Shown in pieces: positions 2,313-25,237 of a stretch of 36,538 bases of DNA (position 1 is its first letter; each line of letters opens with the position of its first letter). Below the pieces are notes generated by a model that searched no databases, was not told the DNA's origin, and worked only from the letters and a program-made list of their open reading frames with translations. The DNA is from Lachnospiraceae bacterium NK4A179 (GTDB lineage Bacteria; Bacillota; Clostridia; Lachnospirales; Lachnospiraceae). A program made the translations under genes and the position numbers. The stretch lies in NCBI GenBank assembly GCA_000421045.1, contig ATWC01000033.1, positions 1 through 36,538 of the forward strand, read 5' to 3'.

Positions 2313-2549
2313 AACTTCCTCACCCCGTGCGGCATTCTCTGACGGTATTTAAGTGAGCCCTAGCGGTTCTCGAAAATGCTTCTATATCCCAGGAACGTTC
2401 CGCCACGGATGGTGGAACGAGCGAACAACGACACATGGATGTGGCGTGTGAGCGTTTCCGGAACTATGCCATAATTTGTCGCATTTTCGCCAGACCCGCT
2501 TGGCGAACTGGTACACCGTCAGAGAATGCCGCAGGGGGGTGAGGAAGTT
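2313..2549 (+). ncRNA. Dispersed repeat copy A with TwoAYGGAY RNA core
   Basis: The element starts AACTTCC and ends GGAAGTT. The terminal inverted repeat extends about 34 bp: GCGGCATTCTCTGACGGT on the left pairs perfectly with ACCGTCAGAGAATGCCGC on the right. Inside, CGAAAATGC (2371-2379) pairs with GCATTTTCG (2481-2489). The centre has two hairpins with loops ACGGAT (2405-2410, stem TTCCGCCA/TGGTGGAA) and ATGGAT (2435-2440). These match the two AYGGAY loops of the TwoAYGGAY motif, an RNA of unknown function. The second hairpin has one A/G mismatch that is a C-G pair in the other copies. It ends 33 bases before the ATG of the GtrA-like gene. Confidence 0.85.
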
Positions 2550-2582
2550 AGCGGTATATATAACCTCGAAAGGTGCAAAAAA

Positions 2583-3011
2583 ATGAAAAAGTTATTCATG
2601 CAGATAGTTAAATTCGGCTTTGTTGGAGCCTTTTGTTTTGTGATAGATTTTGGTCTGTTCAACGGCCTGAATTTTCTCGGCGTTCATTATCTGATATCCG
2701 GAGCCGTAGGCTTTATCGTTTCGGTGATCGTCAACTATATACTTTCATTTAAGTTTGTTTTCGAAAGAAAGGAAGATCTCGACAGACGTGCCGAGTTCAT
2801 AATATTTGTGGTGCTTTCAGCGATCGGCCTTGGCGTGAACGAATTGTTCATATGGTTGTCTATGGATGTTATATATGCAAACAGCCCCTTCCTTCAGAAT
2901 CTGATGGGCGAAAAACTTGCTGCAGCAGGTGGCAAGATCTTTGCTACTGCAGTAGTCATGGTATATAACTTTGTGACAAGAAAGATGTTTCTTGAGAAGA
3001 AGAGTAAATAA
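2583..3011 (+). CDS. GtrA-like membrane protein
   Basis: A 142-residue integral membrane protein of the GtrA type. These proteins are linked to moving or handling lipid-linked sugars in surface polysaccharide synthesis. Four hydrophobic segments are visible: QIVKFGFVGAFCFVIDFGLF near the start, a second from about residue 35 to 58, a third around FIIFVVLSAIGLGVNELFIW and a fourth around IFATAVVMVYNFVTRK, the last being a typical GtrA ending. The start at 2583 follows AAAGGTG about 8 bases upstream. The open frame reaches back to 2526, but that extension lies inside the terminal stem of repeat copy A and is not credible. No partner glycosyltransferase is adjacent. Confidence 0.85.
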   Translation: MKKLFMQIVKFGFVGAFCFVIDFGLFNGLNFLGVHYLISGAVGFIVSVIVNYILSFKFVFERKEDLDRRAEFIIFVVLSAIGLGVNELFIWLSMDVIYANSPFLQNLMGEKLAAAGGKIFATAVVMVYNFVTRKMFLEKKSK

Positions 3012-3097
3012 AATACCATTACATCGAATATTTATTTCTCAGCCATATCTTTGCCTTATGCTTCTTTTTCGTCAAAAGGATAAATAGCTGCAGATAT

Positions 3098-3179
3098 GAT
3101 TTTGCCCAACCGCCATATGCGATTTAATTGGCAAAATCCGTTACTATACATAGCCGGAAAGCTGTGAATAGTAACGGAT
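3098..3179. repeat. Two linked inverted repeats in the long intergenic region
   Basis: GATTTTGCC (3098-3106) pairs with GGCAAAATC (3130-3138), and ATCCGTTACTAT (3136-3147) pairs perfectly with ATAGTAACGGAT (3168-3179). The arms overlap at 3136-3138, so the two stems compete at the junction. No T run follows. They sit between the GtrA-like gene and the tandem repeat in sequence without a credible gene (3012-4326) and could be REP-like palindromes or remnants of a mobile element. Confidence 0.6.
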
Positions 3180-3247
3180 AATAAAATTGCCTAATTATTT
3201 TCTACCGCTCAGATAGTATCAATCATTGGAAAGTCTGCCCTCATAAT

Positions 3248-3463
3248 TTTATGTAATCCCACAGCAAGTTATCAGCACTCTTGGATGAAAATTATTTCTG
3301 AAAAGACTGTATTTATCCATTTATGTAATCCCACAGCAAGTTATCAGCACTTCTGGATGAAAATCCTTTCTGAAAAGATTGGATTTATCCTTTTATGTAA
3401 TCTTGTTGCAGTTCTTCAGCATCGCAGATGGATCTTTCACATGTATTTCATTTCGTGTATTTT
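3248..3463. repeat. Tandem 72-bp repeat, two good units and one decayed
   Basis: Units begin with TTTATGTAATC at 3248, 3320 and 3392, exactly 72 bp apart. The first two match almost throughout (shared TTTATGTAATCCCACAGCAA and GGATGAAAAT), while the third keeps the first 11 bases and then only scattered identity. A small open frame of 88 codons (3285-3551) runs across it because 72 is a multiple of three. That frame has no ribosome binding site and no recognisable product, so it is not called as a gene. The similarity covers the whole unit, unlike CRISPR repeats and spacers. Confidence 0.75.
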
Positions 3464-3631
3464 ACATAACACAAAAAAATCAAGTATGTACCTCGTTCAA
3501 ATCCGGAAATGCATGCAATTTCTTGCTCCTGTTTTACATAACGCAGAATAATCAAGCCATTGTGCTGCTATGGAGATCCTTGTGACGGACAATCTTGAAA
3601 CGCCGTATTTAGTAGCTATGGGAGTTGATCC

Positions 3632-3710
3632 GCGGCCTTCTCTGACGGTATTTAAGTGAGCCTAGCGAACTGGTACACCGTCAGAGAAGGCCGCACGGTG
3701 GTGGGAAGTT
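3632..3710 (+). repeat. Compact repeat copy B without the AYGGAY core
   Basis: GCGGCCTTCTCTGACGGT (3632-3649) pairs perfectly with ACCGTCAGAGAAGGCCGC (3677-3694). The element continues to the typical right end GGGAAGTT, but the matching left end is missing. Between the arms only about 27 bases remain, starting with the conserved AAGTGAGCC and ending with GAACTGGTAC as in copy A; the whole branched core is absent. Compared with copy A, one base pair in the stem changed on both sides (A-T to C-G), a compensatory change. Confidence 0.75.
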
Positions 3711-3725
3711 TAGTAGAATTTCCTC

Positions 3726-3754
3726 TTGCAATTTTTTTACCGCCTGCTTATAAT
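3726..3754 (+). promoter_or_regulatory. Consensus promoter in gene-free region
   Basis: TTGCAA (3726-3731), a spacer of exactly 17 bases containing a T7 run, and a perfect TATAAT (3749-3754). No open reading frame of note begins downstream for over 500 bases, so it points to a short non-coding transcript or a long leader. Confidence 0.65.
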
Positions 3755-3760
3755 GCACCT

Positions 3761-3900
3761 CACAAGGATGCCTGTGCAAATATGCATACCGGAAGGGAGC
3801 TGATGTGCAGGAGAGTTTAACCGGGTATGCCCCGGACAATTTCAAACTTCTGACAGATCTAAGGGCCTTCGGCCCGTCTTACAGGTTTTCTGCCTGGTCG
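3761..3900 (+). ncRNA. Candidate small structured RNA, family not recognised
   Basis: Starting at the expected start site of the promoter at 3726-3754, the sequence is GC-richer than its surroundings and can fold. GCATACC (3784-3790) pairs with GGTATGC (3824-3830). A competing hairpin is CCGGG-TATGC-CCCGG (3821-3835). Further on, GGGCC-TTC-GGCCC (3863-3875) caps an imperfect stem from CTG at 3850 to CAG near 3884. There is no clear open frame and no clear T-run terminator, so the 3' end is a guess. It does not match any riboswitch consensus I could recall (glycine, SAM, lysine, THF, c-di-GMP, T-box), nor 4.5S RNA, tmRNA or RNase P. The rest of 3900-4240 shows nothing supportable. Confidence 0.35.
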
Positions 3901-4248
3901 GTTCTATTCATATCATACCGATTCCCGGATCATTCAGAAACGAAATAATACGAAATTCAAACTGCTTTTATATGAACTTTTTATACTGCCGATTTTTTAG
4001 TTGTGAATGTAATACACAGGTATTGGCACGGGTATCCTTATGAAATACACAGACCGGGTAAATAGGAATCTTAGCTGCGGTTTTTAAACGGGATGATTCA
4101 CGGAGATCCTCCTGTGGCAGGAGGCTGCGGCATGCATACGGAAGGCGGCTGTTCATGCGCAAAAAATGGAAAGACCTTCTCAGACATCCATTGGTTCAAA
4201 TGCTGACTGTATGCATCAAAGATAACTTATGTAACCCGGTCTGTTTTA

Positions 4249-4257
4249 TGTTATAAT
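4249..4257 (+). promoter_or_regulatory. Extended -10 promoter of the GH18-like gene
   Basis: TGTTATAAT is a perfect extended -10 element (TGn then TATAAT at 4252-4257), about 70 bases upstream of the start codon at 4327. No good -35 hexamer is visible, as is common for extended -10 promoters. Confidence 0.55.
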
Positions 4258-4326
4258 ATATCCCGTATGTCTGTATGACCTGACCAAACTGTTATGCGGA
4301 CAAGAAAATATATCAGGGGAATTAAA

Positions 4327-6213
4327 ATGTCTGACGAACAGTTGGAAAACAGAAGGAAGCGCAGACCTGTAAAGGTTAAGCGCCGTAAAAGAAGAGTACA
4401 GAACAGAAGGCGCATGGAAGAGCCTGACCGTGATCTTATAAGAGGCTTCGGACGTAAGCTTATATCGATGTGTATTGCACTCGTGCTTATTCTGATCATA
4501 GGCGGAGTGGCATTCGGCGGAAGGATAAAGAAGGCGATGTCCAGCGGTGAGAAGCTGGGCTTTCATACCGTTATGGAGGTCCTGTATCCGGAGAAGTATT
4601 CCTATTCAACGGAACCTGCCGATATGAACGAGTATTTCAGCCTCTTCTCGGATGATGATGTAGCGATCGTGCTTCAGGATGAACGTATAGAGACAAGAGC
4701 CAAGCTCATTGGCGGTGATGTTTATTTCTCTTCCGATACGGTCTATGATCTGTTCACGAAGCGTTTTTACTATAACGAAACTGAGGGAAGGCTGCTTTAT
4801 ACCACAGCGGATGATATCTATTCCGTAAAAGTCGGAGACGAAAGCAACTATTACGAAACCTCGGAAGGCCGTAAGGACTTCGATAAGCCCATAGCAAGGC
4901 TTTACAAAGACGGAACTCTTTATATCGCAGCTGATTATGTAAGGATGTTCTCCAATTTCTCTTACGAGCTGTTTAAAGATCCCAACAGGCTTAAGCTCGT
5001 TACCGAATGGGGCACAGACCGCATGGCTACGGTAAAGGACGATACATATGTGAGAGTAAAGGGCGGCGTAAAGAGCGATGTGCTCTGCCATTCCAAGGCC
5101 GGCGACAAGGTTGAAGTACTTGAGACCATGGAGACCTGGACAAAGGTAAAGACTGCCGACTGCTTCATAGGTTATGTGGAGAATGACAGGCTTTCGGAAT
5201 ATACGGAAGAAAATCCCACGCCTGTAACGGATGCATATGATCCCAGAGCTGACTTTGATGCACACAGGATAGATGCAGGCCAGATATTCCTTGGTTTCCA
5301 CCAGATAGGTGCACCTGATGACGGAACACAGCTGACAGCGCTTCTTGACAATGCCGTCAGCGTAAATACGGTTTCGCCTACATGGTTCTATCTTCAGGAT
5401 GCTGACGGAACATACCTCGATCTTTCAAATGCAAATTATGTAAAGACTGCGCACAACAGAGATGTGAAGGTTTGGCCGCTGCTTGAGGATATGACAAATG
5501 ATGTTGATGAGTATGCATTGTTCTCAAGTTCAAAGGCAAGACGCAATCTTATAGACGGGTTGATCGCATCTGTTTCGGCATGCGGCGCAGACGGTATCAA
5601 TATCGACCTTGAGCGCATCGATTCAAAGACCGGCCCTCATTACGTGCAGTTCCTTCGTGAGCTTTCGATAGAGACTCACAAGAGAGACCTGGTACTTTCT
5701 GTTGATGACTTTGCTCCGAATGAAGGAAACATTTATTACAACTATAACGAGCAGGGTCATGTGGCCGATTACCTTGCATTGATGCAGTACAACGAGCACT
5801 GGGGCAGCTCCGAAGCAGGCTCCGTTGCATCCGTTGGCTTCATTGAAGAAGGTCTGCAAAAGACTCTCGACAGGGGTGTGCCTTCCGAAAGGATAATAAG
5901 CATACTTCCTTTCTACACAAGAATATGGCGTATAGAAGGCGCTGAGACAACATCCGATGCGGTTGCAATGGATACGGCTGTCCAGTTCCTTGTAAATCAC
6001 GGTATCACGCCCGGCTGGGATGATGAGCTCTGCCAGAACTATGCAGAGTTTGAAGATGGCACCGCAACATATAAGGTATGGCTTGAGGATGAACAGTCCA
6101 TGAGAGCCAAGCTTGGAGTCCTTTCTGAGAAAGGTGTAAAGAACGCGGGCGGCTGGCGTCTCGGTCTGGAGAATGGCGGTACCTGGGGATGGTTTGTGGA
6201 GATACTTGAATAA
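4327..6213 (+). CDS. Membrane-anchored GH18-like glycosidase with SH3-type domain
   Basis: The 628-residue protein has a short Arg/Lys-rich cytoplasmic tail, one membrane helix (about residues 45-65), an N-terminal region resembling the copper-amine-oxidase-like domain often fused to wall enzymes, an SH3-type domain (about 241-289, YVRVKGGVKSDVL to FIGYVENDRL) and a C-terminal GH18 barrel from about 305. The GH18 motif is present as DGINIDLE with the acid catalyst at Glu429. Such YaaH/YdhD-like proteins act on peptidoglycan or related glycans outside the membrane. Start 4327 is preferred over the in-frame ATG at 4294 because AGGGG lies 7 bases before it. It opens a five-gene co-directional run and abuts sua5. 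Confidence 0.87.
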   Translation: MSDEQLENRRKRRPVKVKRRKRRVQNRRRMEEPDRDLIRGFGRKLISMCIALVLILIIGGVAFGGRIKKAMSSGEKLGFHTVMEVLYPEKYSYSTEPADMNEYFSLFSDDDVAIVLQDERIETRAKLIGGDVYFSSDTVYDLFTKRFYYNETEGRLLYTTADDIYSVKVGDESNYYETSEGRKDFDKPIARLYKDGTLYIAADYVRMFSNFSYELFKDPNRLKLVTEWGTDRMATVKDDTYVRVKGGVKSDVLCHSKAGDKVEVLETMETWTKVKTADCFIGYVENDRLSEYTEENPTPVTDAYDPRADFDAHRIDAGQIFLGFHQIGAPDDGTQLTALLDNAVSVNTVSPTWFYLQDADGTYLDLSNANYVKTAHNRDVKVWPLLEDMTNDVDEYALFSSSKARRNLIDGLIASVSACGADGINIDLERIDSKTGPHYVQFLRELSIETHKRDLVLSVDDFAPNEGNIYYNYNEQGHVADYLALMQYNEHWGSSEAGSVASVGFIEEGLQKTLDRGVPSERIISILPFYTRIWRIEGAETTSDAVAMDTAVQFLVNHGITPGWDDELCQNYAEFEDGTATYKVWLEDEQSMRAKLGVLSEKGVKNAGGWRLGLENGGTWGWFVEILE

Positions 6214-7263
6214 ATGGAAACATTGTTCTGCAAGGTGGATCCTGTAGATCCGGATAAAAAGATCATCGAAAAAGCCGGAGAGATAATAAAGGCGGGAGGC
6301 CTGGTGGCTTTCCCTACAGAGACCGTATACGGCCTTGGAGGCGATGCGATCAATCCCGGAGCATCGGAAAAGATCTATGCCGCCAAGGGAAGACCTTCCG
6401 ATAATCCGCTGATAGTGCATATCGCGGAGCTTGATAAGCTTGAGGCACTCTGCAAAAAAGTGCCGGATGAAATGTATAAACTTGCCGAGGTGTTCTGGCC
6501 CGGTCCTCTTACGATGATTGTCGATAAGAGTTCCTTGGTTCCAAAGGAAACTACCGGAGGCCTTGATACAGTGGCCATACGTATGCCCGATCACAATACG
6601 GCGCTTGAATTTATAAAAGCATCGGGCGGATATATCGCTGCTCCCAGTGCAAACACATCGGGACGTCCGAGCCCTACGCTTGCATCGCACGTAAGGACCG
6701 ATCTGGACGGCCGTATTGATATGATAATAGACGGCGGTGAAGTGGGCATCGGTGTTGAGTCCACGATCGTTGACTTAAGCGAAGGCGAGCCTACGATACT
6801 GCGTCCGGGCTATGTTACAAGAGAGATGCTTTCAAGAGTCCTCGGCCGCGTGGATATCGATACAACAATTCTGAGCGGAACAGATAAGAAAGCACCCAAG
6901 GCTCCCGGCATGAAATACAGACATTATGCGCCCAAGGGCAGCATGACTTTGGTTGAAGGGCAAACAGCTGCGGTAGTAAAGCGCATAAACGAAGAAGTTG
7001 CCGCAGCTAAGGCAAAGGGGCTTAAGTGCGGTGTACTTTGCACTTTAGAGACTGAAGCGGATATAAATGCTGATGTAAAGAAGTGCGTTGGCAGCAGGAA
7101 TGATGAGGCTGCCATAGCAAGATCTCTCTACAGAGTCCTCCGTGAATTTGATGAAGAGGGTGCAGAGGTGATCTTTTCGGAAAGTTTCAAAACTGACGGT
7201 TTCGGACAGGCTGTTATGAACAGACTGCTCAAGGCTGCCGGTTATAATGTGGAAAAAATCTAA
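6214..7263 (+). CDS. sua5: L-threonylcarbamoyladenylate synthase (Sua5/YwlC type)
   Basis: Makes threonylcarbamoyl-AMP from threonine, bicarbonate and ATP, the first step of the t6A37 modification of tRNAs that read ANN codons; cytoplasmic. At 349 residues it is the long Sua5 form: a YrdC domain (about 1-205, with GGLVAFPTETVYGLGGDA, KGRPSDNPLIVH and PSANTSGRPSPT) followed by the Sua5 C-terminal domain (about 220-349) after the linker KAPGMKYRHYAPKG. The start codon follows the stop of the GH18-like gene with no gap, and a GGAG lies inside that gene's end, which suggests translational coupling. The short TsaC form is excluded by length. Confidence 0.95.
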   Translation: METLFCKVDPVDPDKKIIEKAGEIIKAGGLVAFPTETVYGLGGDAINPGASEKIYAAKGRPSDNPLIVHIAELDKLEALCKKVPDEMYKLAEVFWPGPLTMIVDKSSLVPKETTGGLDTVAIRMPDHNTALEFIKASGGYIAAPSANTSGRPSPTLASHVRTDLDGRIDMIIDGGEVGIGVESTIVDLSEGEPTILRPGYVTREMLSRVLGRVDIDTTILSGTDKKAPKAPGMKYRHYAPKGSMTLVEGQTAAVVKRINEEVAAAKAKGLKCGVLCTLETEADINADVKKCVGSRNDEAAIARSLYRVLREFDEEGAEVIFSESFKTDGFGQAVMNRLLKAAGYNVEKI

Positions 7264-7281
7264 TATAACAAAGGGGTTAAG

Positions 7282-7313
7282 TTTGAAAGAAATGCTGATA
7301 CATTTCTTTCAAA
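7282..7313 (+). other. Stem-loop between sua5 and rpiB
   Basis: TTTGAAAGAAATG (7282-7294) and CATTTCTTTCAAA (7301-7313) form a perfect 13-bp stem with a six-base loop, ending 9 bases before the rpiB Shine-Dalgarno. It has no following T run. The placement just ahead of an RBS resembles the ackA leader hairpin although the sequence differs. A processing or stability role inside the operon mRNA is likely. Confidence 0.6.
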
Positions 7314-7333
7314 ACCAAATTGGAGGTACAAAA

Positions 7334-7789
7334 ATGGCTGTTAAAAAAATTTCTATGGCATGTGATCACGGCGGTTACGATCTTAAGGAAGACCTGAAGG
7401 CATATCTTACAGACAAGGGTTATGAGATCATCGATGAAGGATGCTTTTCAAAAGAATCTGTCGATTATCCGGACTTTGCGATAAAGACTGCCGAAGATGT
7501 GGTATCCGGAAAAGTTGATCGCGGTATCGTCATATGCACAACAGGCATAGGCGTTTCGATAACAGCCAATAAAGTGAAGGGCATACGCTGCGCACTTTGC
7601 CACAATGAGCACACAGCGCGCATGACTCGCCTTCACAATGATACAAATGTGCTTGCTCTGGGTGCTGCCGAAGTATCTGTCACCATTGCCCGCATCATTG
7701 CGGATATTTTCCTTGAGACAGAGTTTTCGGGCGAAGAGAAGCATGCCCGCCGCATAAGAAAGATGATGGCTTTAGAGGAAAATAACTGA
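7334..7789 (+). CDS. rpiB: Ribose-5-phosphate isomerase B (RpiB/LacAB family)
   Basis: Interconverts ribose 5-phosphate and ribulose 5-phosphate in the pentose phosphate pathway; some family members act on other sugar phosphates such as allose 6-phosphate. The 151-residue protein has the family motifs: CDHGGYDLKEDL near the start, ICTTGIGVSITANK with the catalytic cysteine, and RLHNDTNVLALG. GGAGG lies 7 bases before the ATG at 7334. The frame is open to 7247, but that would overlap sua5 and include the stem-loop, so the later start is used. It is followed after 27 bases by the dCMP deaminase gene. Confidence 0.94.
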   Translation: MAVKKISMACDHGGYDLKEDLKAYLTDKGYEIIDEGCFSKESVDYPDFAIKTAEDVVSGKVDRGIVICTTGIGVSITANKVKGIRCALCHNEHTARMTRLHNDTNVLALGAAEVSVTIARIIADIFLETEFSGEEKHARRIRKMMALEENN

Positions 7790-7816
7790 CAGGCATTTCA
7801 CAGGGAGGGATTTGGC

Positions 7817-8299
7817 ATGGAAAAGAGAATGGGATATATCAGCTGGGATGAATATTTCATGGGCGTTGCCAGGCTTTCGTCCGAGCGTTCGAAGGATCCT
7901 AATACGCAGGTAGGTGCCTGCATCGTCAGCGAAAACAACAAGATCCTTTCCATGGGATACAACGGTTTTCCCTGCGGTGTAAGTGATGATGAATTTCCCT
8001 GGGCAAGAGAAGGGGATGAACTTGAAACAAAATATCCCTATGTAACTCACAGTGAACTCAATGCCATACTCAATTACAGGGGCGGCTCGCTTGAAGGCAC
8101 AAAACTTTACGTGACACTCTTTCCCTGTAATGAATGTGCAAAGGCAATAATACAGGCCGGTATAAAGACGGTTGTATATGCTGATGACAAATATGACGGA
8201 ACACCTTCAAACACAGCTGCGAAGAAACTTTTCAATGCTGCAGGTGTGAGATATTACAGGTATCAGCCGACCGGAAGAACAGTAGAACTAAAACTTTAA
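7817..8299 (+). CDS. dCMP deaminase (ComEB-like)
   Basis: A zinc enzyme that deaminates dCMP to dUMP for dTTP synthesis. The 160-residue protein has the cytidine-deaminase-fold zinc site as HSELNAIL (HxE with the proton-shuttling Glu) and PCNECAKAI (PCxxC). The N-terminal part (DPNTQVGACIV, GYNGFPCGVSDDEFPW) is typical of dCMP deaminases rather than of tRNA adenosine deaminases. A strong AGGGAGGG precedes the ATG. The Bacillus homologue is called ComEB because it sits in a competence operon; no competence genes are beside it here. It is probably co-transcribed with rpiB. Confidence 0.92.
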   Translation: MEKRMGYISWDEYFMGVARLSSERSKDPNTQVGACIVSENNKILSMGYNGFPCGVSDDEFPWAREGDELETKYPYVTHSELNAILNYRGGSLEGTKLYVTLFPCNECAKAIIQAGIKTVVYADDKYDGTPSNTAAKKLFNAAGVRYYRYQPTGRTVELKL

Positions 8300-8311
8300 A
8301 TTTTATCTTAA

Positions 8312-9526: not shown

Positions 9527-9528
9527 TA

Positions 9529-10593: not shown

Positions 10594-10594
10594 T

Positions 10595-11086: not shown

Positions 11087-11130
11087 ACAGCCCCCTCGGA
11101 AAATACTGGTTTATAAATTGATTTTTCAGA

Positions 11131-11164
11131 TATTATAGCACGTTTATGTAAACGTGCTATAATA
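11131..11164. promoter_or_regulatory. Perfect 34-bp palindrome between divergent genes
   Basis: Arms TATTATAGCACGTTTA (11131-11146) and TAAACGTGCTATAATA (11149-11164) are exactly complementary over 16 bp around TG. Each arm contains a TATAAT hexamer pointing outward (11158-11163 on plus; 11137-11132 on minus), so both divergent promoters may use it. The plus hexamer lies 20 bases before the MBOAT start. It could be a dimer-binding operator over both -10 sites, or a 5' hairpin. No T run follows. Confidence 0.65.
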
Positions 11165-11183
11165 TCGCGGGAGAATATTACAT

Positions 11184-12584
11184 ATGGTATTCAGTTCGTT
11201 GATTTTTTTATGGATATTTCTGCCTGCGGTTTTTATCTTAAGCAGGATAAACAGAAGTATACCGTATCAGAATATACTGCTTCTTATAGTAAGCCTTGTT
11301 TTCTACGCATGGGGTGAGCCGGTCTATATCCTGCTCCTGCTTTTTTCGATACTCTTTAACTGGGCAGCAGGCCTGTTGATGGATAAAGCAAAGGGCTCGA
11401 AGAAGATGGTTCTTGCGACTGCGGTCGTTGTAAACCTTGCAGTGCTGGGATTCTTTAAGTATGCGGATTTTGCGGTGGCTACGGTTAACCGCATACCGGG
11501 CGTGGATCTTCCGCTTCCCGGCATAAGCCTTCCTATCGGCATATCTTTCTTCACATTCCAGGCTCTTTCCTATGTTATCGACCTTTACAGGGGTAAGTAC
11601 AAAGCACAGAAAAGTCTTTTCAGGCTGGCACTGTATATTTCATTCTTCCCTCAGCTTATCGCCGGTCCCATAGTCAGATATGAGGATGTGGCAAGGCAGC
11701 TTGAAAAAAGGACCATGACACCTGAGAAGACCGTGGAAGGCATAAGACGCTTTGCTTACGGTCTGGCCAAGAAGGTGCTCATCGCAAATATAGTGGCTTC
11801 CGTTGCCGAGAGACTGTTTGCTCCCGGGGCAGCAGGTATGACCACACCCATGGTATGGATCGCAGCTGTTGCCTATGCGCTGCAGGTTTATTATGACTTT
11901 TCCGGATATTCGGATATGGCGATCGGAATGGGAAAGATCTTCGGTTTTGATTTCAGGGAAAATTTCAACCTGCCCTTTGTTTCAAAGTCTATAGGTGAAG
12001 TGTGGCGCAGATGGCACATATCACTCGGTGAGTGGTTCAAGGAGTATCTGTATATCCCGCTTGGCGGCAACCGTAAGGGCGAGCTGCGCAGCTGCATAAA
12101 CCTTATGATCACTTTTGCAATGACAGGTCTCTGGCACGGTGCCAGCTGGAACTTTGTGGGCTGGGGCGTGTATCAGGGTATATTTATAATCCTTGAGAGA
12201 CTTGGGCTTAAGAAACTTCTTAAGAAGAATGATGTGCTTGCGGTGATCTATTCTGATATCGTGTTTGCGGTGAGCATAATACTTTTCCATGAGATATCCA
12301 TGAGGAGCACGCTTGATATATGGCTTGTAATGTTTGGCATCAGGCAGGGCACACCTCTGCAGCCGCTTGCACTCATGATATCGCCGCTTGAGCTGTGTGT
12401 ATTTATCGCAGGCATACTCGGCTGCGGTGTGATACAGGGCATAGGCGGGCTTAAGGAAAACAAACTGTCACGGATATGGAAAGGAAGTTTTCTGGAAGTG
12501 CTGTTCCTTTCGGTAGCGATGTTCCTGTCGATCACCTTCCTTTCAACCGATGCCTATAATCCGTTTATTTACTTTAGGTTCTGA
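11184..12584 (+). CDS. MBOAT-family membrane O-acyltransferase (AlgI-like)
   Basis: A polytopic membrane protein of 466 residues with about ten hydrophobic segments. It has the MBOAT hallmarks of AlgI/DltB relatives: GISFFTFQALSYVIDLYRG, YYDFSGYSDMAIGMGKIFGF, WRRWHISLGEWFKEYLYIPLGG with His278, and TGLWHGASWNF with His318, the conserved catalytic histidine. Such proteins pass acetyl groups across the membrane to an extracellular transferase that modifies polysaccharides or wall polymers. The DHHW/AlgJ-like gene that follows is the expected partner. GGGAG (11169-11173) lies 10 bases before the ATG. The target polymer is not identifiable. Confidence 0.93.
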   Translation: MVFSSLIFLWIFLPAVFILSRINRSIPYQNILLLIVSLVFYAWGEPVYILLLLFSILFNWAAGLLMDKAKGSKKMVLATAVVVNLAVLGFFKYADFAVATVNRIPGVDLPLPGISLPIGISFFTFQALSYVIDLYRGKYKAQKSLFRLALYISFFPQLIAGPIVRYEDVARQLEKRTMTPEKTVEGIRRFAYGLAKKVLIANIVASVAERLFAPGAAGMTTPMVWIAAVAYALQVYYDFSGYSDMAIGMGKIFGFDFRENFNLPFVSKSIGEVWRRWHISLGEWFKEYLYIPLGGNRKGELRSCINLMITFAMTGLWHGASWNFVGWGVYQGIFIILERLGLKKLLKKNDVLAVIYSDIVFAVSIILFHEISMRSTLDIWLVMFGIRQGTPLQPLALMISPLELCVFIAGILGCGVIQGIGGLKENKLSRIWKGSFLEVLFLSVAMFLSITFLSTDAYNPFIYFRF

Positions 12585-12717
12585 AAATATGAAAATCAGT
12601 AAATGAAGATATATATAGATCGGGATATGAAAAAATATAAAGATAAATATTTAAAGATCAGAATATAAAGATAATTTTTTAAAATATATATGAAGAAAAA
12701 TATTTTAAGATAAAGAT

Positions 12718-13824
12718 ATGAAGATCAGAATAGAAAGACTGCAGAAAATTGCATATCACATAATGTTTTTTGTAATGCTGGTGATCCCTATCCCGCTTTA
12801 TTTTGTGGTGCGCGGCAAACTGGATCATGAGAATTACGAGTACAGAACGTTAGCAGCTTTCCCGGATATAAAGGAGACAGGCTACACGGGTTTTGCAAAG
12901 GCTTTTGAAAACTGGTTTTCCGATCATCAACCGTATAAGAATGAACTGGTCGAATTCGGAAGCTACGTAAAATTCTATGTTTTCAGGACGCCTTCCGATC
13001 CTACTGTAGTTATAGGAAAAGATAACTGGCTGTTCTTTAAAGGCGTGGATCCGGATGACCCCATCGCTTATTATCAGGGTAACAATCTGCTGACTGATGA
13101 AGAACTGGAAGCACTTGCTGTAAGCCTCAATGCGGCAGATAAAGAGCTTGAAGCAAGAGGCTGTGACTTTGTGCTTTTCTTAACACCTGAGAAGGAGAGA
13201 ATGTATCCGCAGTATATGCCTGACATCTACGGGAAGCCGGCTGAAAAGTGCCGCTATTTCCAGGTTGCGGAATACCTGCGCGAGCACACGGATATACCTG
13301 TGATCCTTGCGTATGATTCGCTGAAACCCTACATGGATTCTCATCCCGATGAACAGACATATCTAAAGTACGATACACATTGGAATGAAGCGGGCGCATA
13401 TATTGGCTCGACTGAGATAGCTGAGTACCTTGGCCATCCGCTTCCGTATTATGATGATATAAATGTGAGCATCGAAAATTACCCGCAGGAGAATCTTGGA
13501 AGACTCCTTCACCTGCAGGATACTTTCAATGATGATCATTCGCGTGTGCTTTCAGGATATGGCGAGAGCGAGTATAAATATGATCCCGCATCAGGCGATA
13601 TGCATTTTTATAATTCCGAAGGAACCGATGAAAGAAAGATAATGCTCATCGGTGATTCGTACCGTCTGTTTATGCAGAAATATGCTCTGCGTGATTTCAA
13701 GATGGGCTATTCGGATTATTATTATAACTATACTCACGATGCCCTCGAGGCAGAAGATCCGGACATATTCATTTACGAATCACATGAGTACGCATTATCG
13801 CATTTAAGTGACTTTGTCCCTTAA
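12718..13824 (+). CDS. AlgJ/AlgX-like (DHHW family) extracellular O-acetyltransferase
   Basis: A 368-residue protein with one N-terminal membrane helix (about 13-30) and an extracellular SGNH-like domain. The DHHW motif is DTHWNEAG (Asp219, His221), and the nucleophile region is IGDSYRLF with Ser314. In AlgX/AlgJ and related enzymes these residues make the Ser-His-Asp triad that moves acetyl from an MBOAT protein to a sugar. The pairing with the preceding MBOAT gene supports this. The 133-base gap before it (12585-12717) is extremely AT-rich, contains AAGATCAGAATA once there and again at the start of the gene, and offers no Shine-Dalgarno. The last codons form a hairpin that is partly duplicated downstream. 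Confidence 0.87.
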   Translation: MKIRIERLQKIAYHIMFFVMLVIPIPLYFVVRGKLDHENYEYRTLAAFPDIKETGYTGFAKAFENWFSDHQPYKNELVEFGSYVKFYVFRTPSDPTVVIGKDNWLFFKGVDPDDPIAYYQGNNLLTDEELEALAVSLNAADKELEARGCDFVLFLTPEKERMYPQYMPDIYGKPAEKCRYFQVAEYLREHTDIPVILAYDSLKPYMDSHPDEQTYLKYDTHWNEAGAYIGSTEIAEYLGHPLPYYDDINVSIENYPQENLGRLLHLQDTFNDDHSRVLSGYGESEYKYDPASGDMHFYNSEGTDERKIMLIGDSYRLFMQKYALRDFKMGYSDYYYNYTHDALEAEDPDIFIYESHEYALSHLSDFVP

Positions 13825-13890
13825 ATGCGAGCGGTATAGGCTCATGAACGCTATATAAATATAAGTGACTTCGTCCCTTAGATGCGATTG
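13799..13890 (+). repeat. Hairpin at the stop codon and its degenerate downstream duplicate
   Basis: CGCATTTAA (13799-13807) pairs with TTAAATGCG (13821-13829) across the stop codon of the DHHW gene. The stretch beginning AAGTGACTTTGTCCCTTA at 13806 recurs with few changes at 13863 (AAGTGACTTCGTCCCTTA), followed by similar ATGCGA and TATGAA segments, giving a direct repeat with a 57-bp period. It lies immediately before repeat copy C. The first hairpin could end transcription weakly; there is no T run. Confidence 0.6.
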
Positions 13891-13918
13891 GCTTATGAAT
13901 AATTAACAGTGTATAAGT

Positions 13919-14152
13919 AACTTCCCACACCGTGCAGTATTATCCGGCGGTGTTATAGAGAGCCTTAGCAGTTCTCGAAAATGCTTATACACCCCAGGAA
14001 CGGTCCACCATGGATGGTGGACCGAGTGAACAACGCCACATGGATGTGGCGTGTGAACGGTTCCGGCAGCATATCACAACTTCCCGCATTTTCGTCCGAA
14101 CTGCTTGGCGAACGATTCCACCGCCGGATAATACTGCCGGTGTGAGGAAGTT
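13919..14152 (+). ncRNA. Dispersed repeat copy C with TwoAYGGAY RNA core
   Basis: Ends are AACTTCC and GGAAGTT. Left stem GCAGTATTATCCGGCGGT pairs exactly with right stem ACCGCCGGATAATACTGC; the sequence is unlike copy A but pairing is intact. AGCAGTTC and CGAAAATGC pair with GCATTTTCG and GAACTGCT. Hairpin 1 is GGTCCACCA/TGGTGGACC with loop region ATGGAT (14010-14015); hairpin 2 is ACGCCACA/TGTGGCGT with ATGGAT (14040-14045), both perfectly paired. The element ends 18 bases before the acyltransferase ATG, and that gene's AAAGG ribosome binding site follows directly, so it is probably part of its mRNA leader. Confidence 0.88.
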
Positions 14153-14170
14153 TTAATAAAGGTTACGGTT

Positions 14171-15445
14171 ATGAAGAAATCTCCAGCATGGGAAAAACTT
14201 GATAATACAGCACTCCTCTTTCCGGTCATAGCAACGGAAGGAATGAGCAATGTTTACAGACTTTCGGCGATACTTACCGAGGATGTCGATCCTGCACTTT
14301 TGAAGGAGGCACAGGATAAAGTTCTTGCGCAGTTTTTAAGTTTCCGGATGCGCCTGCGCACGGGCGTGTTCTGGTATTACTTTGAAGAGAACGATAAAAA
14401 ACCGCCTCAGGTAAATGAAGAGAATGATTTTCCGGGAGCGTATATAAATAAGAGCCGGAACAATCAGTATCTGTTTCGCGTGACATATTATAAGAAGCGC
14501 ATAAACCTTGAGGTATTCCATGCGCTCACTGATGGCTTCGGTGGTCTTGTATTTCTGAAGGAGCTCCTCTATCAGTATCTGAGACTTAAGCATCCGGAGC
14601 TTGCAAAGATTGAGAAGGACTGCCTTTCTCCCGGTGTCTTTCTTGATAAGGAAGACAGCTATATGAAAAACTTCCGTCGCAGCGTAAGTCATGACACTGC
14701 CTATAAGTCAAAGAAGGCTGTCACGTTAAAAGGTGAGAAGCTTCCAAAGGGCGAGATGGGTGTTGTGCACGGATATTTCAAGCTGGCCGAGGTGAAGGCT
14801 GCCGCAAAGAAATACGGCATTACTCTCAATCAGTTTCTTGTGGGCACATATGTATACGCCATGTACAGAGAGTATCTGAAAGGTGCGCCGTCGGATATCC
14901 CCATAAACTGCTGCGTGCCTGTGGATCTGCGCTCATACTATGAGTCTCATACGATGAAGAATTTCTTCGTTATGATCTCGGCCGAATTCAAGCCTGAGAA
15001 GGACGAATATACATATGAGGAAGTGTTGCTTGGTATTGCCGAAACACTGAAGAAGCAGACCAATAAGGAAAATCTTGATAACATACTTTCATATAATGTA
15101 TCGAACGAAGCAAATAAGCTCCTGCGTCCGATACCTCTCTTTATAAAAAACTTTGCGATAAGAAGTGTTTATGAATCTACCGCATATGGCACCACATCAA
15201 CGATGACCAATGTCGGAAAGATAGAGCTGCGCGAACCTTATGAACCCTATGTGGAACGCTTTAATGCGATGCTCTCCATGTCGAAGGGACAGAATATGAA
15301 GGGCGCAATACTCAGCTACAAAGATATGATGGTACTTACTTTCACTACGGTTCTTGCAGACATATCAATAATAAAAAGATTTTATTCATGCTTAAGAAAA
15401 GAAGGCGTGAATGCAGCGATAGAGACCAATGGAGTATGGGATTGA
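14171..15445 (+). CDS. Condensation-domain-like acyltransferase (alcohol acetyltransferase type)
   Basis: A 424-residue protein with the chloramphenicol-acetyltransferase/condensation-domain fold. Its HxxxDG active-site motif appears as FHALTDGFGG (His117, Asp121, Gly122), and the second-half motif INCCVPVDLRSYY corresponds to the DFGWG-proximal region of the superfamily. The closest match I recognise is the alcohol acetyltransferase/PapA-like group that transfers acyl groups from CoA to hydroxyls. It is the first gene of a three-gene operon with overlapping ends. AAAGG sits 8 bases before the ATG and just after repeat copy C. Substrate unknown; a surface lipid or glycolipid acylation role is inference from context. 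Confidence 0.78.
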   Translation: MKKSPAWEKLDNTALLFPVIATEGMSNVYRLSAILTEDVDPALLKEAQDKVLAQFLSFRMRLRTGVFWYYFEENDKKPPQVNEENDFPGAYINKSRNNQYLFRVTYYKKRINLEVFHALTDGFGGLVFLKELLYQYLRLKHPELAKIEKDCLSPGVFLDKEDSYMKNFRRSVSHDTAYKSKKAVTLKGEKLPKGEMGVVHGYFKLAEVKAAAKKYGITLNQFLVGTYVYAMYREYLKGAPSDIPINCCVPVDLRSYYESHTMKNFFVMISAEFKPEKDEYTYEEVLLGIAETLKKQTNKENLDNILSYNVSNEANKLLRPIPLFIKNFAIRSVYESTAYGTTSTMTNVGKIELREPYEPYVERFNAMLSMSKGQNMKGAILSYKDMMVLTFTTVLADISIIKRFYSCLRKEGVNAAIETNGVWD

Positions 15446-16206
15446 ATAAAACTGAGAAAAAATCAGAGAAGAAAACAAAGCACGAAAATATCGAGCCTGA
15501 GATAAAGCATATGAAGATGTGCCCGCAGTGTCAGGCTGTGCTTTATGACGGCAATGAGACATGCCCTTTGTGTCATTGTGTGCCTGAAGACTTAAGCGCA
15601 GAGGATGAGGCACGTGTGACAAAGGAATTCGGTGCAGTTGCGCCCTATCCCGATGCAAAGAAAAAGTACCGTGCGGTAAAGATAGTCCTTCGCATCGCAC
15701 TTTTTGTTCTGATACTTGCAGCAGTGGCCATGCTCATAGTGAACTATACAGTCACGCCCACTATCAAGTGGTCATTTATTGCCATAGCCGGAGAAGCGTA
15801 TGCATATATCATGCTTTACTACTGGCTTAAGAATGATTCCGGCTTTGCGGCAAAAGTCGCGCTTCAGATCTTCTCAACTGCGGCTCTTGTATATGCAGTG
15901 GATATGCTCACCGGGAATTACGGTTGGGCTTTGCAATGGGCCATACCCGGTATCATACTTTTAGGCGATGGTTTTGTTTTCCTTTTGATGATGATGAACC
16001 GAAGCAGATGGCACAGCTATCTGCTCCTGCTGATACTTATGGGCGTATGCAGCATTGCGCTTGCAGGTTTCTTTATTGCAGGTCATTTAGAACATAAGCT
16101 TGTGGCAATGATATGCATTGCGGTTACCGGTATCTATATCCTTGCTACCGTTATTTTCGGGCAGGCCAAGATATCAACAGAATTAAAGAGGCGCTTCCAT
16201 GTCTGA
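15442..16206 (+). CDS. Zinc-ribbon membrane protein (DUF6320-like)
   Basis: The product begins with a Lys/Glu-rich stretch, then a zinc ribbon (MCPQCQAVLYDGNETCPLCH, four cysteines), then about six membrane helices from VLRIALFVLILAAVAMLIV to YILATVIFGQA. It resembles the DUF6320 proteins that accompany this kind of acyltransferase in Clostridia. The start is taken as TTG at 15442, with GGAG 7 bases upstream and the codon overlapping the previous stop; ATG at 15436 is in frame but only one base from that GGAG. The frame stays open to 15388, inside the previous gene. Its end overlaps the next gene by 8 bases. Function unknown; it may recruit the flanking enzymes to the membrane. Confidence 0.75.
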   Translation: MNKTEKKSEKKTKHENIEPEIKHMKMCPQCQAVLYDGNETCPLCHCVPEDLSAEDEARVTKEFGAVAPYPDAKKKYRAVKIVLRIALFVLILAAVAMLIVNYTVTPTIKWSFIAIAGEAYAYIMLYYWLKNDSGFAAKVALQIFSTAALVYAVDMLTGNYGWALQWAIPGIILLGDGFVFLLMMMNRSRWHSYLLLLILMGVCSIALAGFFIAGHLEHKLVAMICIAVTGIYILATVIFGQAKISTELKRRFHV

Positions 16207-17176
16207 AGAAGTTACCAGCCTGCGTGCAAGGGCTGCGGCATTTACAGCGATGATCACAAACAACCTGCATGCCGCCAAAGACCCTGTACGCCGCTCCAAA
16301 CTTTACAATCATGAACCTGAATGGAAATGCCCTGCATATCACCTTGTATCAACCGTGGATCTGGGTGAATGCAGTGCAGATCTTCTGTGCCTTAAAAAAG
16401 GTTCGGGCATTCTTCCGGGTGACGGAACAGGACATCTGGAGGAGATGCTGAAGGTCCTTAAAGAAACCGTAAGGCCGCGTCCTACAGAGAATGCGGCAGT
16501 CCTCCAGCTTCACGGAGGCGGATATTATCTTCCCCTGCACAATCTCTACCGCGACACGGCGGTGATATATTCCATGCTTTTCGGCGGTGCTGATGTGCTG
16601 ACGCCTGATTACAGGACTGCACCGGATGATCCATTTCCCGCAGCTTTTGAAGATGCGCTTGATGCATATAAATGGCTGCTTAAGGATTATGAGCCTGAGA
16701 ATATAATATTTGCAGGTGATTCGGCAGGCGGCGGACTTGCACTCGCACTTGCGGCATTCTTACGTGATAAGCATATGCCTCTTCCTTCAAAGTTGATCAC
16801 CATGAGCGCATGGACCGATCTTACAAAGAGCGGGGTATCATATAAAGAGAATTTTAATAATGATCCGGTATTTGGCGGATCAAAGGATACGCTTGTCTTT
16901 AAGGATGGATATTACAGGGATGATGATCCCGAGAATCCCTGCATCTCCCCGATATTTGCTGATAAAAAAGGACTGCCGCCCATTCTCATGCAGGTAGGCG
17001 ACAGAGAGATGCTGCTTTCCGATACCGTGGATTTTGCTGAAGAAGCAAAGAAAGAAGGCGTTGATGTGCGCACTCATGTGTATCCGGGTATGTTCCATAT
17101 TTTCCAGATGGGACTTTATCTTTTCCCCGAGGCGGTCAGTGCCTGGGAGGAAGTTGGAAGATTTATTAATGACTAA
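16199..17176 (+). CDS. Alpha/beta hydrolase of the hormone-sensitive-lipase type
   Basis: A 325-residue esterase/lipase-like enzyme. The oxyanion-hole motif is LHGGGYYL (His105-Gly-Gly-Gly), the nucleophile elbow is GDSAGGG with Ser175, and the acid and base are likely in VGDREMLLSD and the Asp/His region ending VYPGMFHIFQ. It lacks a signal peptide, so it acts inside the cell or at the inner membrane face. The overlap with the zinc-ribbon gene and the acyltransferase two genes upstream suggest an acyl ester made and removed, or remodelled, by the same operon. The stop overlaps that of the convergent unknown gene by 3 bases. Confidence 0.88.
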   Translation: MSEEVTSLRARAAAFTAMITNNLHAAKDPVRRSKLYNHEPEWKCPAYHLVSTVDLGECSADLLCLKKGSGILPGDGTGHLEEMLKVLKETVRPRPTENAAVLQLHGGGYYLPLHNLYRDTAVIYSMLFGGADVLTPDYRTAPDDPFPAAFEDALDAYKWLLKDYEPENIIFAGDSAGGGLALALAAFLRDKHMPLPSKLITMSAWTDLTKSGVSYKENFNNDPVFGGSKDTLVFKDGYYRDDDPENPCISPIFADKKGLPPILMQVGDREMLLSDTVDFAEEAKKEGVDVRTHVYPGMFHIFQMGLYLFPEAVSAWEEVGRFIND

Positions 17177-17676
17177 AACTTCCTGCACCGGAAGCCTTGG
17201 CTGCCTGTGTGGGAAAGAGTTTCTAATATTCTGACTATCCGTTCGTTTTTTAAATGCTTCACGTCTTTCAAAGGCCATGGGAGCTTCAGGCAATAGTCTC
17301 TGTCGGCTTGTGACAGTCCTGAGAGTCCGGCTTCAAATCCCTTAAGGTCTTTATATTTCATCTTTCCAAATGAAACCGTAACATATTCGGCATTATCTGA
17401 AGCAGAGGCCACGGGAACACGTCTAAAGGATGTGCGTCCGTAAGGGCCTGTTTCTTTAACTATCTCATAAGGCTTTGTATCTTCACCTTCTTCTGTTACG
17501 GTTTTGGTCTCTTTGAGATAACGCCATATTTCTTCTGTCACGGCGCTTTCGGGCATGGGAAAATCAAGCCTGTGCGTGATCTGTGCAAAATCCATTCCGG
17601 AATCAAACATATGACGCACGGCACCTCCTGCAGCCATATCAAATGTGAAATTTTTCAGAGCCGTTTTAAATGTCAT
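17173..17676 (-). CDS. Hypothetical protein, unrecognised family
   Basis: A 167-residue soluble protein beginning MTFKTALKNFTFDMAAGGAV and containing ITHRLDFPMPESAVTEEIWR, then a Glu/Lys-rich stretch and KETGPYGRTSFRRVP. No signal peptide, membrane helix or known catalytic motif was seen. Compact helical character in the first half is suggested by the pattern. The final 15 codons coincide with a repeat-like palindrome (17177-17221), so the C-terminus may have been replaced or extended by a fragment of the dispersed element. Repeat copy D lies 54 bases upstream of its start. The start ATG at 17676 has weak ribosome binding support. The genuine coding status rests on the uninterrupted frame in a region with no better gene. 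Confidence 0.6.
   Translation of the reverse strand: MTFKTALKNFTFDMAAGGAVRHMFDSGMDFAQITHRLDFPMPESAVTEEIWRYLKETKTVTEEGEDTKPYEIVKETGPYGRTSFRRVPVASASDNAEYVTVSFGKMKYKDLKGFEAGLSGLSQADRDYCLKLPWPLKDVKHLKNERIVRILETLSHTGSQGFRCRKF
17177..17221. repeat. Possible remnant of the dispersed element inside a gene end
   Basis: AACTTCCTGCACCGG (17177-17191) resembles the left end of copies C and D. An imperfect partner (CCTGTGTGGGAAAGAGTT) follows within 45 bp, with a small inner stem AGCC-TT-GGCT. It overlaps the last codons of the minus-strand hypothetical gene. The pairing is imperfect and the core is absent, so assignment to the family is tentative. Confidence 0.4.
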
Positions 17677-17730
17677 TTTTGAATAATTTCAAAGTCATTT
17701 TAAACGTCATTTTAATATTAAGTATATTAT

Positions 17731-17960
17731 ACTTCCCGCACCGGCAGGCAAGGCCTCCGGTGTTAAAGTGAGCCTTAGCAGTTTTCGAAAATGCATACAT
17801 TCCCCAGGAACGGCCCGCCACGGATGGCGGGCCGAGCGAACAACGCCACATGGATGTGGCGTGTGAGCGGTTCCGGAAGGAATCAATAATTTTGAGCATT
17901 TTCGTAAGAACTGCTAGGCGAACGGTTCCACCGGAGGCCTTGCCTGCCGGTGTAGGAAGT
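17731..17960 (+). ncRNA. Dispersed repeat copy D with TwoAYGGAY RNA core
   Basis: Ends are ACTTCC and GGAAGT. The left stem GGCAGGCAAGGCCTCCGGTG pairs exactly with CACCGGAGGCCTTGCCTGCC on the right, again with a sequence unlike the other copies. CGAAAATGC pairs with GCATTTTCG inside. Hairpin 1 is GGCCCGCCA/TGGCGGGCC with ACGGAT (17820-17825); hairpin 2 is ACGCCACA/TGTGGCGT with ATGGAT (17850-17855). It lies between the divergent hypothetical gene and cysE. A separate cysE promoter lies downstream of it, so here the element need not be in the cysE leader. Confidence 0.87.
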
Positions 17961-18007
17961 TTTAGCTAATTATAACACACATGAGCCTTTAAAAATGGCG
18001 TCCTCGT

Positions 18008-25132: not shown

Positions 25133-25145
25133 TGTTAAATGTGCC

Positions 25146-25175
25146 TTGCCATAGTTGTACGAGTTGTGATACACT
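25146..25175 (+). promoter_or_regulatory. Probable promoter of the giant gene
   Basis: TTGCCA (25146-25151), an 18-base spacer and an extended -10 (TGATACACT, hexamer 25170-25175). This leaves a leader of about 55 bases with a strong AAAGGAG just before the ATG at 25238. Confidence 0.5.
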
Positions 25176-25237
25176 ATCTTACGATTGCCGGGATACCCGG
25201 CTTAATTTGCTATCCAAAAAAGGGAAAGGAGAAACAG

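What the first reader, a model, noticed from the sequence alone, without database searches (positions are those of the whole stretch)
2313..17960. Dispersed structured elements carrying the TwoAYGGAY RNA core, with copy-specific covarying terminal stems
Three full copies (2313-2549, 13919-14152, 17731-17960) share AACTTCC/GGAAGTT-type ends, a GTGAGCC...GGCGAAC internal frame and a branched core with two AYGGAY loops. The terminal stems differ almost completely (for example GCGGCATTCTCTGACGGT, GCAGTATTATCCGGCGGT, GGCAGGCAAGGCCTCCGG) yet each pairs with its own right arm. Hairpin 1 covaries too (TTCCGCCA, GGTCCACCA, GGCCCGCCA). Such pairing without sequence conservation inside one genome is strong evidence for selection on structure, or for a mobile palindromic element whose ends are rewritten by gene conversion between arms. 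The TwoAYGGAY core is a named motif of unknown function; the long outer element, its spread over 16 kb and its constant orientation are what seem new.
Basis: partly seen in the sequence, partly recalled or inferred. Interest (0 to 1): 0.9.

Follow-up and report, generated by a model that had tools for sequence, protein, structure and literature searches.

The report
Jumping DNA repeats with CsrA-type hairpins
Three look-alike stretches in this bacterial genome are worn copies of a small jumping piece of DNA whose centre can fold into two hairpins resembling landing sites for the regulator protein CsrA, so an RNA motif of unknown function appears, in this group of bacteria, to be part of a mobile repeat.

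Summary
The three copies are genuine TwoAYGGAY (RF01731) matches; the genome has 20 matches, 19 over the cut-off. The terminal stems are not unrelated: W1 and W2 align with the family stem, and W3's looks partly inverted. "Constant orientation" is chance: unpaired copies run with both neighbouring genes 44 times and against both 41 times.

What it is: recently moved relatives in four same-genus genomes are exactly 266 bp, with terminal repeats CTAAAACTTCCCAC/GTGGGAAGTTTTAG and 7-bp target-site duplications, 97-100% identical, mostly at unrelated sites. TwoAYGGAY here is therefore the centre of a miniature inverted-repeat element (MITE). No transposase partner was found.

Covariation is strong (30 of 85 pairs changed on both sides) but does not look RNA-driven in the outer stems: G-U and A-C mismatches are equal (288 vs 307) and pairing does not fall with divergence. 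Copying of one DNA arm onto the other (template switching) fits best.

The two loops match the CsrA hexaloop consensus closely, and genomes with the element mostly encode CsrA (43 of 44 vs 111 of 255; 24 of 28 vs 71 of 263). CsrA and flagella are almost inseparable in these samples, so CsrA binding remains inferred.

The parts
2313..2549 (+). Copy W1 of the element (outer stem + TwoAYGGAY core), beside a GtrA-like gene (the called frame 2526-3011 begins inside the right arm; another ATG follows at 2583)
   Evidence: nhmmer 226.0 bits, fold z -11.5, neighbour PF04138, sequence
2348..2511 (+). TwoAYGGAY core of W1
   Evidence: RF01731, 91.9 bits
2396..2419 (+). W1 hairpin 1, loop ACGGAT closed by C-G (CsrA-type)
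   Evidence: sequence, Rfam alignment, fold
2429..2447 (+). W1 hairpin 2, loop ATGGAT flanked ACA/TGT
   Evidence: sequence and Rfam alignment; the best unconstrained fold does not show this hairpin
3632..3710 (+). Stem-only relic: a W1-like copy with the core deleted (GTGAGCC joined to TAGCGAAC)
   Evidence: nhmmer 17-51 and 189-236 of the element profile, 18.6 and 20.4 bits; sequence
13919..14152 (+). Copy W2; right end runs into terminal-repeat-like GGAAGTTTTA (14146-14155)
   Evidence: nhmmer 236.9 bits, fold z -13.0, terminal repeat
13954..14119 (+). TwoAYGGAY core of W2
   Evidence: RF01731, 94.9 bits
14001..14024 (+). W2 hairpin 1, loop ATGGAT
   Evidence: sequence, fold
14033..14052 (+). 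W2 hairpin 2, loop ATGGAT flanked ACA/TGT
   Evidence: sequence, fold
17173..17215 (+). Stub of another copy: terminal repeat CTAAAACTTCC plus a collapsed stem; its TAA (17174-17176) is the stop codon of the upstream alpha/beta-hydrolase gene
   Evidence: terminal-repeat scan, sequence, gene end 17176
17731..17960 (+). Copy W3, with a partly inverted-looking outer stem; terminal-repeat-like GGAAGTTTTA at 17955-17964
   Evidence: nhmmer 229.4 bits, arm comparison, fold z -15.3
17763..17928 (+). TwoAYGGAY core of W3
   Evidence: RF01731, 106.9 bits
17811..17834 (+). W3 hairpin 1, loop ACGGAT
   Evidence: sequence, fold
17843..17862 (+). W3 hairpin 2, loop ATGGAT flanked ACA/TGT
   Evidence: sequence, fold

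Best explanation
The three copies are aged members of a non-autonomous miniature inverted-repeat transposable element (MITE). The recently moved form in related genomes is 266 bp, bounded by CTAAAACTTCCCAC/GTGGGAAGTTTTAG, and makes a 7-bp target duplication (shown, in relatives). After insertion the long palindrome keeps or regains its pairing because DNA synthesis copies one arm onto the other and sometimes inverts a segment; this, not selection on an RNA, produces the copy-specific compensated outer stems (inferred from the mismatch test, the inverted-looking W3 arm and the lack of decay with divergence). The core carries two hairpins with GGA loops of the CsrA type; when a copy is transcribed on the AYGGAY strand it would bind CsrA, making the family a scattered set of CsrA-binding sites (inferred from loop consensus and co-occurrence with CsrA; binding and transcription not shown).
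For: 20 matches in this genome, 19 over the cut-off; 26 of 35 same-genus and 44 of 299 family-level genomes have matches (both include the own genome). Of 10 loci of the young subfamily, 6 had both ends by exact pattern (five of 266 bp, one internally deleted, 145 bp) and 4 one end only; flanking 7-mers agree at 6,7,7,7,6,5 of 7 (38 of 42; 63 of 20000 permutations as high; two of the six loci are one orthologous site); the five 266-bp elements are 97.3-100% identical and only that orthologous pair shows flank similarity. Two of seven G027 copies tested are missing from corresponding places in sister genome G024. 3 of 188 copies have their midpoint in a called gene (6 overlap one by more than 30%), with 72% of the loci gene-covered; no orientation bias. 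Outer stems: 167 distinct stems among 178 copies tested, against 3 of 1077 random control places; G-U 288 vs A-C 307, p 0.46. W1-W3 stems score 27-29 (all 17 copies 17-33) against 19 for the active element, and pairing does not fall with core divergence (rho -0.12, p 0.66). GGA in both hairpins in 129, one in 45, none in 10 of 184 cores by a mechanical hairpin finder. CsrA consensus RUACARGGAUGU, six-base loop closed by AC/GU (PMC7652899 passages). CsrA in 43 of 44 element-bearing vs 111 of 255 other family-level genomes (p 4e-13), 24 of 28 vs 71 of 263 in the class sample (p 1.5e-9), 20 of 24 vs 66 of 257 without the own family (p 3e-8). Core hairpins have a higher G-U share than outer stems (20/9 vs 288/307, p 0.036), which fits some RNA-level constraint on the core.
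Against: No transposase with these ends was found (only held stretches could be scanned). W1-W3 show no clear target duplication. The terminal repeats belong to the subfamily around this genus; copies in other genomes have different outer stems and their ends were not worked out. CsrA and flagellin are almost co-extensive (flagellin in 44 of 44 element-bearing genomes; 8 of 299 genomes have only one of the two), so the association may reflect motility or ancestry. Within the own genus CsrA is no commoner in element-bearing genomes (21 of 26) than in others (8 of 9); five element-bearing genomes there lack a detected CsrA, and the 8 G011 and 9 G016 copies looked at keep GGA in both loops. Four G041 copies have lost GGA from both loops although G041 has CsrA. 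Random orientation means about half of the copies would give the wrong strand when read from neighbours. The control for the mismatch test is small: 19 E. coli tRNAs give 9 G-U, 3 A-C, 1 other of 323 pairs, and the difference in G-U/A-C share from outer stems is not significant (p 0.083); the share of other mismatches does differ (988 of 1583 vs 1 of 13, p 7e-5), though it includes alignment noise.
Confidence: 0.62

Rival explanations
1. A conserved regulatory RNA (CsrB-like sponge or cis element) in which both core and outer stems are selected at RNA level; the many copies are functional gene copies.
For: Highly stable folds, strong covariation, GGA loops kept in most cores, CsrA co-occurrence, a higher G-U share in core hairpins than in outer stems (p 0.036), and one copy between fliK and flgD genes shared by G024 and G027 with 210 of 213 identical bases against 377 of 420 and 371 of 413 in the flanks.
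Against: No G-U excess in outer stems, random orientation, target duplications and near-identical copies at unrelated sites, copies absent from sister sites.
Confidence: 0.15
2. A purely DNA-level parasite (MITE or REPIN-like) in which the GGA hairpins are recognised as single-stranded DNA by a mobilising enzyme; CsrA co-occurrence is only shared ancestry or motility.
For: All DNA-level evidence above; paired inverted copies in seven genomes; core hairpins with few G-U pairs (20 of 2374); no CsrA association within the genus.
Against: Loops match the CsrA RNA consensus; co-occurrence with CsrA holds outside the own family too (20 of 24 vs 66 of 257); the outer ends differ among genomes while the GGA core mostly stays.
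Confidence: 0.2
3. REPIN-type repeat mobilised by a RAYT (TnpA-REP) enzyme.
For: Intergenic, palindromic, multi-copy, inverted doublets in seven genomes; compensatory changes are also reported for REPINs (PMC3116915 passages).
Against: 266 bp with 14-bp terminal repeats and a 7-bp target duplication fit a conventional transposase better; a RAYT was not searched for.
Confidence: 0.03

Closest known systems
TwoAYGGAY RNA motif (RF01731)
   Same: Core is the same family by covariance model.
   Different: Described as probable RNA, probably not cis-regulatory, from human gut, gamma-proteobacteria and Clostridiales (PMC2864571 table row); Rfam 15 types it Cis-reg. Here it is the centre of a mobile element with terminal repeats and target duplications.
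CsrA-sequestering sRNAs (CsrB, CsrC, RsmY, RsmZ)
   Same: Hairpins with GGA in the loop; the CsrA-binding idea for TwoAYGGAY was published from a motif match (PMC4333381 passages).
   Different: Two sites per copy, many dispersed orientation-neutral copies rather than one dedicated gene; no transcript shown.
MITEs of bacteria (features recalled)
   Same: Short, no gene, terminal inverted repeats, target duplication, intergenic, multi-copy.
   Different: Carries a conserved branched core with protein-site-like hairpins; transposase partner unknown.
REPINs
   Same: Dispersed palindromes with compensatory changes, sometimes in inverted doublets (PMC3116915 passages).
   Different: Larger, with ends like those of conventional transposons; RAYT not tested.

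Membership tests
TwoAYGGAY (RF01731) | Match above the curated gathering score | tested here: met
   91.9, 94.9, 106.9 bits vs 43
TwoAYGGAY (RF01731) | Cis-regulatory position and orientation (Rfam type Cis-reg) | tested here: not met
   Of 153 unpaired intergenic copies 44 same/same, 41 opposite/opposite, 20 convergent, 12 divergent, 36 with a neighbour not called
MITE | Terminal inverted repeats | tested here: met
   CTAAAACTTCCCAC/GTGGGAAGTTTTAG in 266-bp relatives
MITE | Target-site duplication | tested here: met
   7 bp, 38 of 42 positions over six loci in relatives, two of them one orthologous site; not visible for W1-W3
MITE | Short, non-coding, dispersed copies | tested here: met
   266 bp; 20 matches; 3 of 188 midpoints in called genes
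MITE | Mobilised by a transposase acting on the same ends | tested here: inconclusive
REPIN | Inverted doublet with RAYT-recognised tags | tested here: inconclusive
   Inverted doublets in seven genomes; RAYT not searched
CsrA-binding sRNA | GGA in hairpin loops, paired sites | tested here: met
   GGA in both hairpins of 129 of 184, in one of 45, in none of 10; consensus from PMC7652899
CsrA-binding sRNA | Host encodes CsrA | tested here: met
   43 of 44 and 24 of 28 element-bearing genomes, own genome included; in the own genus 21 of 26
CsrA-binding sRNA | Transcribed and binds CsrA | not testable with these tools
   No RNA or binding data

The most novel reading that the evidence does not exclude
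Mobile CsrA decoys: a transposable element family spreads pairs of CsrA-binding RNA hairpins through genomes of motile Clostridia, so each insertion adds a decoy or a new CsrA-controlled untranslated region. Transposition would set the CsrA titration level in bacteria whose relatives use the protein FliW as CsrA antagonist.
Probability: 0.3. Interest if true: 0.85.

Novelty: new variant of a known kind. Interest (0 to 1): 0.62.

Why it matters
TwoAYGGAY has been listed as an RNA candidate since 2010 and as a family of unknown function in 2014 (PMC2864571, PMC4333381; passages). Showing that it sits in a mobile element with defined ends gives a testable account of its copy number, and warns that covariation, usually taken as the best evidence for a functional RNA, can be produced by DNA arm-copying in palindromic repeats. 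[quoted passage not shown]

Tried and rejected
Rejected: copy-specific unrelated stems; constant orientation (a first version on 128 copies with paired copies included and stricter gene calls gave 40 same/same vs 30 opposite/opposite and none inside genes); intrinsic terminator reading (no consistent T run at the ends of W1-W3, by eye). An empty-site test at W2 and W3 was not possible: in the listed matches (a capped list) I saw no relative matching on both sides of either copy. Loop decay in CsrA-lacking genomes: not seen in G011 and G016. Of the five element-bearing same-genus genomes without a detected CsrA, four (G006, G011, G016, G028) show a single flagellin match and lack the weaker (about 60-75 bit) flagellin-domain match that lies near csrA in many others, so that locus may be missing from their assemblies; the fifth, G009, has four flagellin matches including a weak one. 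Inconclusive. The four element-bearing class-level genomes without CsrA are all of one family (f24); three are under 90% complete, G603 is 95% complete. Empty-site comparison of G027 with G024: 7 of G027's 11 matches were in the query; two are absent at conserved sites, one is shared, two are ambiguous, two had no usable match. Correlation of pairing with age: none. First mismatch counts on 128 copies agree (184 vs 204). First tRNA control (6 G-U, 4 A-C, 5 other; no difference from outer stems, p 0.53) was mis-registered for tRNA-His and was redone with the anticodon stem added. Gamma-proteobacterial matches in Atopomonas: 10, two over the cut-off, nine covering only part of the model; not pursued.
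Full report
Observation. The three stretches are real and are TwoAYGGAY matches at 91.9, 94.9 and 106.9 bits (gathering score 43). Each folds into one long stem capped by a branched core, far below its shuffles. The genome has 20 matches in all, 19 over the cut-off, on many contigs. Across 17 of them (three cut by contig ends left out; one of the 17 lacks hairpin 2) 30 of 85 pairs are changed on both sides, 22 of them in the outer stem, against 0 of 500 shuffles and 7-13 for slid partners; related sequences can exceed such shuffles without structure. The claim that the stems are unrelated is wrong: W1 and W2 arms align with the family arms, and W3's left arm looks like the family right arm; W3's right arm scores 30 against left arms and 37 against right arms, so the match to a clean inversion is incomplete. 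In the window there are also a core-deleted relic at 3632-3710 and a stub at 17173-17215.

Distribution. Matches occur in 26 of 35 genomes of the genus, 44 of 299 of a family-level sample of 298 genera (42 over the cut-off) and 28 of 291 of a class-level sample (20 over the cut-off). Ten named stretches hit by a stricter pattern are nine Lachnospiraceae and one Atopomonas; several of those contigs have exactly the lengths of contigs in same-genus genomes (299007 = G001:C5, 98121 = G005:C22), so I take the genus to be one of Lachnospiraceae. The species of the window was not told.

Position. Of 188 copies from 64 genomes, 3 have their midpoint in a called gene and 6 overlap one by more than 30%, although 72% of the examined DNA is gene-covered. 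Of 153 unpaired intergenic copies 44 run with both neighbours, 41 against both, 20 lie in convergent and 12 in divergent gaps, 36 lack a called neighbour (gene calls are my own codon-usage calls). This is not the pattern of a cis-regulatory leader.

Mobility. A subfamily in G001, G005, G020 and G031 gives exact ends. Ten loci were examined; five hold a 266-bp element and one an internally deleted 145-bp element with both ends; four show one end only. The 7 bases on each side agree at 6,7,7,7,6,5 of 7 (63 of 20000 permutations as high); two of these loci (G001:C6, G020:C4) are one orthologous site, so five sites are independent. The 266-bp elements are 97.3-100% identical, two of them (G001:C6, G005:C48) identical over 262 bases at sites without flank similarity. 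One (G031:C2) seems to sit inside a remnant of another copy's end (sequence). In G024, two of seven G027 copies tested are missing while flanking sequence aligns through; one copy between fliK and flgD genes is shared and more conserved (210 of 213) than its flanks (377 of 420, 371 of 413). Window copies belong to the same family (W2 is 80% identical to the G001:C6 element) but show no clear duplication themselves.

What keeps the stems paired. If an RNA made from the AYGGAY strand were selected for pairing, G-U mismatches should be tolerated and A-C mismatches not; a DNA process treats them alike. Stems were aligned with equal penalties for all mismatches. In 167 distinct outer stems (178 copies tested; 3 of 1077 random control places reach the same score) there are 288 G-U and 307 A-C (p 0.46). 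Core hairpins have 20 and 9 of 2374 pairs (p 0.06), a higher G-U share than the outer stems (p 0.036). Stems of 19 E. coli tRNAs, a small control, have 9 and 3 of 323, not significantly different in this share from the outer stems (p 0.083); other mismatches are far commoner in the outer stems (988 of 1583 vs 1 of 13, p 7e-5), part of which may be alignment noise. Stem pairing does not fall as the core diverges (rho -0.12, p 0.66, 17 copies), and the window copies pair better (27-29) than the recently active element (19); other copies range from 17 to 33. Template switching between arms of inverted repeats is known to homogenise arms and invert spacers (PMC8604942 passages) and has been proposed to create and maintain RNA hairpins (PMC8794818 abstract and outline). 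I conclude, as an inference, that arm copying maintains the outer stems.

CsrA. Many loops read C-A-N-GGA-N-G; the SELEX consensus for CsrA is RUACARGGAUGU with a six-base loop closed by AC/GU (PMC7652899 passages). GGA lies in both hairpins in 129, in one in 45 and in none in 10 of 184 full-length cores, by a mechanical hairpin finder. The suggestion that TwoAYGGAY binds CsrA is published from motif matching (PMC4333381 passages). Added here is a co-occurrence test: CsrA in 43 of 44 element-bearing against 111 of 255 other genomes at family level, 24 of 28 against 71 of 263 at class level (four element-bearing genomes are in both samples), and 20 of 24 against 66 of 257 when the own family is left out. 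Flagellin is in 44 of 44 element-bearing genomes, and only 8 of 299 genomes have one of CsrA and flagellin without the other, so motility and ancestry are not excluded. Within the genus there is no association (21 of 26 vs 8 of 9). Two groups run against CsrA binding: four copies in G041 with no GGA loop, and intact loops in G011 and G016, where CsrA was not found.

Literature. A full-text search for TwoAYGGAY gave 7 papers, 5 listed; I read passages of four of them and not PMC7657543; none of those passages describes mobility. Searches joining CsrA with miniature inverted-repeat elements (one paper) and with mobile element, repeats, sponge and dispersed (10 of 40 listed) showed no paper on such an element in their listings; the one paper of the first (PMC4383904, passages) mentions the terms separately.

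Verdict. Ordinary as a repeat, new as an account of this motif: a MITE family with a CsrA-site-like centre. MITE nature in this genus I hold at about 0.9, arm copying at about 0.65, CsrA binding at about 0.45.

Noticed in passing
window 17173-17215: A stub of the element provides the stop codon of the upstream alpha/beta-hydrolase gene (16199-17176), so insertion may have changed that protein's C-terminus.
   Followed up: partly
window 17173-17676, - strand: An open frame of 167 aa between the stub and W3 has no Pfam or NCBIfam match.
   Followed up: partly
L141 about 2328-2539; L166: A copy between fliK and flgD genes is shared by two species and more conserved than its flanking coding sequence; it may be a co-opted copy in a flagellar operon.
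   Followed up: partly
L092-L104: Seven genomes carry divergent pairs of copies; in those printed the two members have different long stems; the unit and its origin are unexplained.
   Followed up: partly
L178-L180, L182, L183: Atopomonas hussainii has ten dispersed weak matches; the five printed each carry two or three hairpins with GGAU loops, perhaps a parallel case in gamma-proteobacteria.
   Followed up: no
window 25139-36091, + strand: A single open frame of 3650 aa, not examined.
   Followed up: no
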